Program-made: the position numbers and the translations under genes
Part shown: positions 51,455 through 53,098 of the stretch, piece by piece
How positions within the stretch are numbered: position 1 is the first letter of the stretch
Layout: the number at the start of each line of letters is the position of its first letter
Assembly: GCF_000484535.1 (NCBI RefSeq)
Contig: NC_022600.1
Location: forward strand, 1,922,001-1,986,000
From: Gloeobacter kilaueensis JS1
GTDB taxonomy: Bacteria > Cyanobacteriota > Cyanobacteriia > Gloeobacterales > Gloeobacteraceae
DNA length: 64,000 nt
Direction: 5' to 3'
Notes under the pieces: model-generated
The model's database searches: none
Told to the model about the DNA's origin: nothing
The model's input: only the letters and a program-made list of their open reading frames with translations

Positions 51455-51475
51455 CTTAGAATAAATCTAGATTGA
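51455..51475 (-). promoter_or_regulatory. candidate PerR/Fur box
   Basis: A TTAGAATAAATCTAGATTG segment contains the exact palindrome AATCTAGATT at 51464-51473, about 75 bases before the PerR-like start and also upstream of murD. It is AT-rich in a GC-rich setting, like Fur-family boxes, but it does not fit the 7-1-7 consensus perfectly. Confidence 0.4.
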
Positions 51476-51546
51476 GATGCTGTCAAGCGCGCGAATCTGA
51501 ATTGCCCTTAAACTGTCCTGGCAGCGGCGTAATTGGGAGTGCAGCG

Positions 51547-52893
51547 GTGGTGGTGGCGGTGGTCGGGGCAGGCAGATCCGGTCAGGCGGCGGCGCGGTGG
51601 CTGGCAAGCCAGGGTATGCAAGTACAGGTATGGGATGGGGGGCGCGGTGAGGCGTTGCAGGGGGTGGCCCAGACCCTCACTGCTGGCGGCATCGAAGTCA
51701 TCCTTGGTCGAGAATTTGTCCTGGAGGAGCCTCTGCCCAGCAAAGTGATCGTCAGCCCCGGTGTGAGCTGGGATCATCCGGGACTGGTGGCAGCGCGGGC
51801 GCGGGGGCTGGCGGTCACAGGCGAAGTGGGCCTTGCCTGGGAAGAACTCAAGGATCGCAGGTGGCTCTGTGTCACCGGCACCAACGGCAAGACGACCACC
51901 ACCGCCCTTATCGGTCACATCTTTGCCCAGGCGGGCATCGCCGCTCCGGTCTGCGGCAACATCGGCAGGCCCGCAAGCGAGCTACTGCTTACCCCAGAAC
52001 CCTGCGAGTGGATCGTCGCCGAGTTGAGCAGCTTTCAGATCGAAGCTGCGGGCGACCTAAAGCCGGAGGTAGCGGTCTGGACCACCTTCAGCCCCGACCA
52101 CCTCAACCGCCACGGCACCCTCGAGCGCTACGCTGCGATCAAGGCGAGTCTGCTCGTGCGCGCCCGGCGGGCGGTTCTCAACGGCGACGACGCCTACTTG
52201 AAGGCGCAGCGCCGCTCGTGGCCCGACGCCTGGTGGACGGCGATTGGCGATCCCCAGGCCCAGGTGAGCGTCGAGCAGGGACAGATCTGTGTGCTCGCAA
52301 AGCCCGTCCTGCCGGTGGCCGCCGTTCGCCTGCCGGGAGCCCACAATTTACAGAACGTGCTGATGGCGGTCGGCGCTACCTATCTGGCCGGCATCTCGAT
52401 CGAGGAGATTGGCCGGGCGGTGGCCAGCTTTGAGGGCGTCGCTCACCGTCTGGAGCCGGTGGGAGTCCACGCCGGTATTCGGTTTATCAACGACTCGAAG
52501 GCGACCAACTACGACGCGGCCCTGGTGGGCCTGCTCGCCACCCCCGCCCCCACCGTGCTCATCTGCGGCGGCGAGGCCAAAGCGGGCGATCCGGACGCCT
52601 GGCTTGCTGCGGCCTGCGAGCGCTGCGCCGCCGTTGTTCTTATCGGCTCAGCCGCGCCACTTTTTGAACAATGGTTCAGAGAACGGGACTACCGGGGGAT
52701 TACCGTCGCTCACACCCTCGACCGGGCCGTCCCCATCGCCTTCGATCTCGCCCGCGCTGCCCAGGCGGGCTCGGTGCTTTTTTCGCCCGCCTGTGCCAGC
52801 TTCGACCAGTTTTTGAACTTCGAGGAGCGCGGTGAGCGCTTTCGGGCTTTTGTGAACGGCCTCACTTCCGTCAGGTCGGATCGCGCTCGATGA
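51547..52893 (+). CDS. murD: UDP-N-acetylmuramoyl-L-alanine:D-glutamate ligase MurD
   Basis: MurD adds D-glutamate to the peptidoglycan precursor in the cytosol. The ATP loop CVTGTNGKTTTTALIGHIF, AELSSFQIE, WTTFSPDHLNRHGTLERYAA and RFINDSKATNYDAAL are all present. Start: GTG at 51547 preceded by GGGAG at seven bases gives the normal N-terminus (VVAVVGAGRSGQAAARW). A TTG at 51472 would add 25 odd residues. The last 23 bases overlap a 34-residue membrane peptide gene on the other strand. Confidence 0.96.
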   Translation: MVVAVVGAGRSGQAAARWLASQGMQVQVWDGGRGEALQGVAQTLTAGGIEVILGREFVLEEPLPSKVIVSPGVSWDHPGLVAARARGLAVTGEVGLAWEELKDRRWLCVTGTNGKTTTTALIGHIFAQAGIAAPVCGNIGRPASELLLTPEPCEWIVAELSSFQIEAAGDLKPEVAVWTTFSPDHLNRHGTLERYAAIKASLLVRARRAVLNGDDAYLKAQRRSWPDAWWTAIGDPQAQVSVEQGQICVLAKPVLPVAAVRLPGAHNLQNVLMAVGATYLAGISIEEIGRAVASFEGVAHRLEPVGVHAGIRFINDSKATNYDAALVGLLATPAPTVLICGGEAKAGDPDAWLAAACERCAAVVLIGSAAPLFEQWFRERDYRGITVAHTLDRAVPIAFDLARAAQAGSVLFSPACASFDQFLNFEERGERFRAFVNGLTSVRSDRAR

Positions 52894-52975
52894 TGAACAG
52901 CAGCGCCGCGAAGGCCATGAAAGGCACGACCAGACCGACGATGATCACCAGCGGCGGAATAACGTTGTACTGCAT
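52871..52975 (-). CDS. 34-residue single-span membrane peptide, possible photosystem small subunit
   Basis: The frame reads ATG CAG TAC AAC through TGA, with AGGGG about seven bases before the ATG. It encodes a short polar N-terminus (MQYNVIPP), one membrane helix (LVIIVGLVVPFMAFAALLFI) and a charged tail (IERDPT). This is the build of small photosystem subunits. The helix centre with Pro and the closing LLFI-IE recall PsaI. Gloeobacter PSI is reported to lack PsaI and to carry an extra small subunit, PsaZ, so a PSI role is an appealing but untested idea. The 3' end overlaps murD by 23 bases. Confidence 0.7.
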   Translation of the reverse strand: MQYNVIPPLVIIVGLVVPFMAFAALLFIIERDPT

Positions 52976-53072
52976 GAATTGCCCCTTGCCGGTACTTCAG
53001 CCCAGAATATACCGCCTGCTCCACCAAAGCGGGACCGATCGCTTTACAACTCGTTAAATTTCGCGACAAAAA

Positions 53073-53098
53073 ACGTGATCAAGAAAGCCCGATCACGT
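53073..53098 (-). terminator. intrinsic terminator of the HNH gene, overlapping its stop
   Basis: ACGTGATC (53073-53080) pairs with GATCACGT (53091-53098) across a 10-base loop, followed leftward by a T run. The HNH stop codon (53079-53081) lies at the base of the loop, so the terminator includes the last codons. Confidence 0.8.

What the first reader, a model, noticed from the sequence alone, without database searches (positions are those of the whole stretch)
52871..52975. Overlooked 34-residue membrane peptide gene beside murD
It has a good ribosome-binding site, a single ideal membrane helix and a charged tail, and overlaps murD by 23 bases. The helix pattern with a central Pro and a terminal LLFI-IE hints at a PsaI-like photosystem I subunit. 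Gloeobacter is reported to have an unusual small PSI subunit, PsaZ. It may be that subunit or a new one.
Basis: partly seen in the sequence, partly recalled or inferred. Interest (0 to 1): 0.62.

Follow-up and report, generated by a model that had tools for sequence, protein, structure and literature searches.

The report
PsaZ (PsaI-type) photosystem I subunit
The 34-residue membrane peptide gene next to murD is real and is psaZ, the already published Gloeobacter version of the small photosystem I subunit PsaI, so the find is correct but not new.

Summary
The ORF at 52871-52975 (-) is as described: 34 aa, one strong membrane helix, a plausible ribosome-binding site, and a 23-base tail-to-tail overlap with murD. 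It is a real gene. The peptide matches PsaZ in the solved G. violaceus photosystem I (PDB 7F4V) at E 1e-11, 79% identical. The frame is intact in 8 of 9 Gloeobacterales genomes, and in all 8 that are at least 90% complete and at most 5% contaminated. The first two are the same thing: in 7F4V, PsaZ sits at the PsaI position, and a profile of the Gloeobacterales peptides finds PsaI chains (E about 1e-5). A new subunit is excluded. "Overlooked" also fails for this organism: a 2023 paper states that psaI (psaZ) was annotated in G. kilaueensis, unlike in other Gloeobacterales, and concludes that PsaZ is PsaI. The likely role is that of PsaI: a single helix beside PsaL that contacts carotenoids and supports the trimer. 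For this species that is inferred from the G. violaceus structure. Verdict: already known, low interest.

The parts
52871..52975 (-). psaZ (= Gloeobacterales psaI), photosystem I subunit, 34 aa, one transmembrane helix
   Evidence: ORF; PDB 7F4V PsaZ match E 1.1e-11; intact frame in 8 of 9 Gloeobacterales genomes; PsaI profile match
52982..52986 (-). Shine-Dalgarno-like AGGGG, 6 bases before the ATG (relatives: AGGAGG at the same place)
   Evidence: sequence
52871..52893 (.). 23-base convergent overlap with the 3' end of murD (4 bases in G. violaceus and in G004)
53073..53098 (-). terminator-like hairpin with T run at the end of the upstream HNH endonuclease gene; suggests that psaZ is transcribed on its own
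   Evidence: a consensus match only
51472..52893 (+). murD, neighbour on the opposite strand, no sign of a functional link

Best explanation
The ORF is psaZ of Gloeobacter kilaueensis, the Gloeobacterales form of psaI. It encodes a single-helix subunit of photosystem I. Its helix packs next to PsaL near the centre of the trimer, contacts carotenoids, and stabilises PsaL and the trimer. Shown here: gene, frame conservation, identity as PsaZ, homology to PsaI. Taken from the published G. violaceus structure: position at the PsaI site and two beta-carotenes assigned to the subunit. Inferred for this species, and from general knowledge of PsaI: expression, assembly, and the stabilising role.
For: 79% identity to the PsaZ chain of PDB 7F4V, E 1.1e-11. 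A profile of six Gloeobacterales peptides finds 7F4V PsaZ (1e-21), 9E0J subunit VIII (3.7e-21), and then only PsaI chains (5e-6 and weaker) among 177,635 PDB sequences. hhalign of the PsaZ set against a PsaI set: probability 96.9, E 1.5e-10; the PsaI set is confirmed by Pfam PSI_8 in all six members. All eight Gloeobacterales genomes that are at least 90% complete and at most 5% contaminated have it, once each. The own genome has no other PSI_8 match but does have psaL and psaF. Literature: PMC9000952 for position and carotenoids; PMC10694217 for 'PsaZ is indeed PsaI' and annotation in G. kilaueensis.
Against: The single sequence has no Pfam match and PSI_8 finds nothing in this genome, so PsaI membership rests on profile comparison and on position in the G. 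violaceus structure. No expression or proteomic data for G. kilaueensis were available. It is not beside psaL, which lies about 1.4 Mb away in this genome.
Confidence: 0.97

Rival explanations
1. PsaZ is an unrelated, Gloeobacterales-only subunit that replaced PsaI at the same site (non-homologous replacement), as the name PsaZ and older papers implied.
For: Published pairwise identity to Synechocystis PsaI is only 20%; single sequences miss the Pfam PSI_8 cut-off; two papers list PsaI as absent and PsaZ as extra.
Against: Profile and single-sequence searches of all PDB chains return only PsaZ and PsaI; profile-profile E 1.5e-10 with the central Pro and the IE at the helix end aligned; same site in the structure.
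Confidence: 0.03
2. A chance open frame, or a small membrane peptide unrelated to photosystem I.
For: Short ORF overlapping another gene.
Against: Frame conserved in 8 of 9 genomes; 79% identity to a chain seen in a solved photosystem I; of 17 differing codons against G. violaceus 10 are synonymous, with 14 of 26 changes at third positions; survives where murD has moved.
Confidence: 0.003

Closest known systems
PsaZ of Gloeobacter violaceus PCC 7421 (PDB 7F4V chain aI)
   Same: Length (35 vs 34 aa), 79% identity, murD next to it in the genome and the HNH gene nearby, same spacing of the ribosome-binding site
   Different: One residue longer near the start; seven substitutions in 33 residues; overlap with murD 4 bases instead of 23
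Photosystem I subunit VIII in PDB 9E0J (32 aa, identical to the translated frame in G007, probably Anthocerotibacter)
   Same: Same family, 47% identity, same helix pattern
   Different: Shorter start, aromatic WLVY motif near the start
PsaI (Pfam PF00796, PSI_8) of other cyanobacteria and plastids
   Same: One helix; core of the pattern LV..GLV.P......LF..IER aligned over 30 columns; same site in photosystem I in G. violaceus
   Different: Low pairwise identity; below the Pfam cut-off; not next to psaL in this genome

Membership tests
PsaZ | Close sequence similarity to the PsaZ chain of Gloeobacter photosystem I | tested here: met
   E 1.1e-11, 79% identity over 33 residues
PsaZ | Present throughout Gloeobacterales, one copy | tested here: met
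   8 of 9 genomes, one match each; the exception is a fragmented genome with 8% contamination
PsaZ | Found in purified photosystem I of the organism | not testable with these tools
   Shown for G. violaceus only (PMC9000952)
PsaI (PF00796) | Match to the family's Pfam profile above the curated cut-off | tested here: not met
   No PSI_8 match in the own genome; one of six Gloeobacterales members matches weakly, E 0.14. The published equivalence PsaZ = PsaI rests on structure, not on this profile.
PsaI (PF00796) | Homology to PsaI by profile comparison | tested here: met
   hhalign E 1.5e-10; PDB PsaI chains at E 5e-6 and weaker
PsaI (PF00796) | Occupies the PsaI site beside PsaL in photosystem I | not testable with these tools
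   Reported for G. violaceus PsaZ; inferred here by 79% identity
PsaI (PF00796) | Gene next to psaL (seen in some cyanobacteria; not a strict criterion) | tested here: not met
   psaL is at 3.40 Mb, psaZ at 1.97 Mb; of the other PsaI loci only two had psaL within 1.5 kb

The most novel reading that the evidence does not exclude
PsaZ is a non-homologous or functionally distinct replacement of PsaI that contributes to Gloeobacter-specific properties of photosystem I, such as the lack of low-energy chlorophylls.
Probability: 0.03. Interest if true: 0.4.

Novelty: already known. Interest (0 to 1): 0.1.

Why it matters
Gloeobacter lacks thylakoids and branches at the base of oxygenic cyanobacteria. 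Its 'missing' photosystem I subunits have been read as primitive traits. That PsaZ is PsaI, and that a psaJ-like frame sits beside psaF, means that part of the apparent absence is an annotation gap in very short, diverged genes. This point is already published (PMC10694217); the present result repeats it independently for this genome.

Tried and rejected
Weak hits L014, L016 and L018 are chance matches: L014 and L016 lie inside long unrelated frames, and L018 is a poor match in a genome that has a proper psaI elsewhere (L015). The promoter scan found no sigma-70-like site upstream of psaZ. Considered and rejected: PsaM, because no PsaM chain appears among the hits and PsaI chains do. Structure prediction was not run, because a solved structure of a 79% identical protein exists. 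One failed script and one rejected term list had no effect.

Full report
Observation. The frame exists exactly as described: 52871..52975 on the minus strand, ATG to TGA, 34 residues, MQYNVIPPLVIIVGLVVPFMAFAALLFIIERDPT. It overlaps the 3' end of murD by 23 bases, tail to tail. AGGGG stands 6 bases before the start; the relatives have AGGAGG at the same place. Its hydrophobic stretch is the strongest of the 264 frames of 25-45 residues in the window, 2.93 against 1.92 for the next.

Organism. The window's genome is a single contig of 4,724,791 bases. That is the published size of Gloeobacter kilaueensis JS1 (PMC3806779). The relative G001 has 4,659,019 bases, which I recall as the size of G. 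violaceus PCC 7421; its frame gives the same protein as the 7F4V PsaZ chain.

Identity. Against all PDB sequences the peptide's best match is photosystem I subunit Z of G. violaceus, 7f4v_aI, E 1.1e-11, 79% identical. Every other match up to E 10 is a photosystem I subunit VIII (PsaI) chain. Whole-genome searches find the frame in the same genus at E about 5e-11 and in other Gloeobacterales at E 1e-3 to 6e-3. With a profile of six sequences, eight of nine genomes of the order have one match each at E below 1e-18. The profile includes sequences from most of these genomes, so those E-values are partly built in; the independent evidence is the single-sequence search. The ninth genome is a 530-contig assembly with 8% contamination.

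Selection and independence from murD. Between G. kilaueensis and G. violaceus 17 of 33 codons differ; 10 are synonymous, and 14 of 26 base changes fall at third positions. In G002 and G003 the intact murD lies elsewhere, and beside psaZ only a short frame resembling the last murD codons is left. The PsaZ protein there is identical to that of G. violaceus. So psaZ is kept for its own sake.

PsaZ and PsaI. The profile of Gloeobacterales peptides finds PsaI chains at E 5e-6 and weaker, and nothing but PsaZ and PsaI up to E 1. Profile-profile comparison with six PsaI sequences from other cyanobacterial genomes gives probability 96.9 and E 1.5e-10; all six of those match Pfam PSI_8. Two of those psaI loci (L011, L013) have psaL close by. 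Pfam PSI_8 itself misses the Gloeobacterales branch. The eLife 2022 paper places PsaZ at the PsaI site, with two beta-carotenes assigned to it (PMC9000952). The 2023 paper concludes that PsaZ is PsaI and says that the gene was annotated only in G. kilaueensis among the Gloeobacterales (PMC10694217). Earlier papers counted PsaI as missing and PsaZ as extra (PMC8386580; PMC7368068).

Mechanism. By identity with the solved G. violaceus subunit, the helix sits at the PsaI site and contacts carotenoids. That this site is beside PsaL near the trimer centre, and that PsaI helps to hold PsaL and the trimer, is general knowledge of the family, not tested here. Transcription is probably independent of the upstream HNH gene, which ends in a terminator-like hairpin at 53098..53073; no promoter consensus was found, so this step is inference.

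Verdict. A correct reading of a real gene by the first stage, but the gene, its name, its structure in a close relative and its equivalence with PsaI are published. 'Overlooked' does not hold for this species according to PMC10694217, and 'new subunit' is excluded.

Noticed in passing
L041:1342-1452 (-), downstream of psaF at G000:C1:4064611-4065066 (outside the window): A 36-aa frame MKLWSPIAGLLFIVGSLVVLIFANQLAHYPLFFPLS directly after psaF matches photosystem I subunit IX (PsaJ) of PDB 9E0J at E 1.1e-6, although Pfam PsaJ finds nothing in this genome. It fits the unannotated Gloeobacter psaJ reported in PMC10694217.
   Followed up: partly
L002 (upstream of 315) and L004 (upstream of 1501): In two Gloeobacter genomes only a short remnant resembling the murD 3' end remains beside psaZ, while an intact murD lies elsewhere; it looks like a rearrangement with a breakpoint near the end of murD.
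   Followed up: partly
window 53073-53098 (-): Terminator-like hairpin (11 pairs, T run) that overlaps the last codons of the HNH endonuclease gene.
   Followed up: no
Pfam PF00796, tested on window 52871-52975 and L002-L008: The PSI_8 model misses the Gloeobacterales branch of PsaI; adding PsaZ sequences to its seed would correct the recurrent statement that PsaI is absent from Gloeobacterales.
   Followed up: partly
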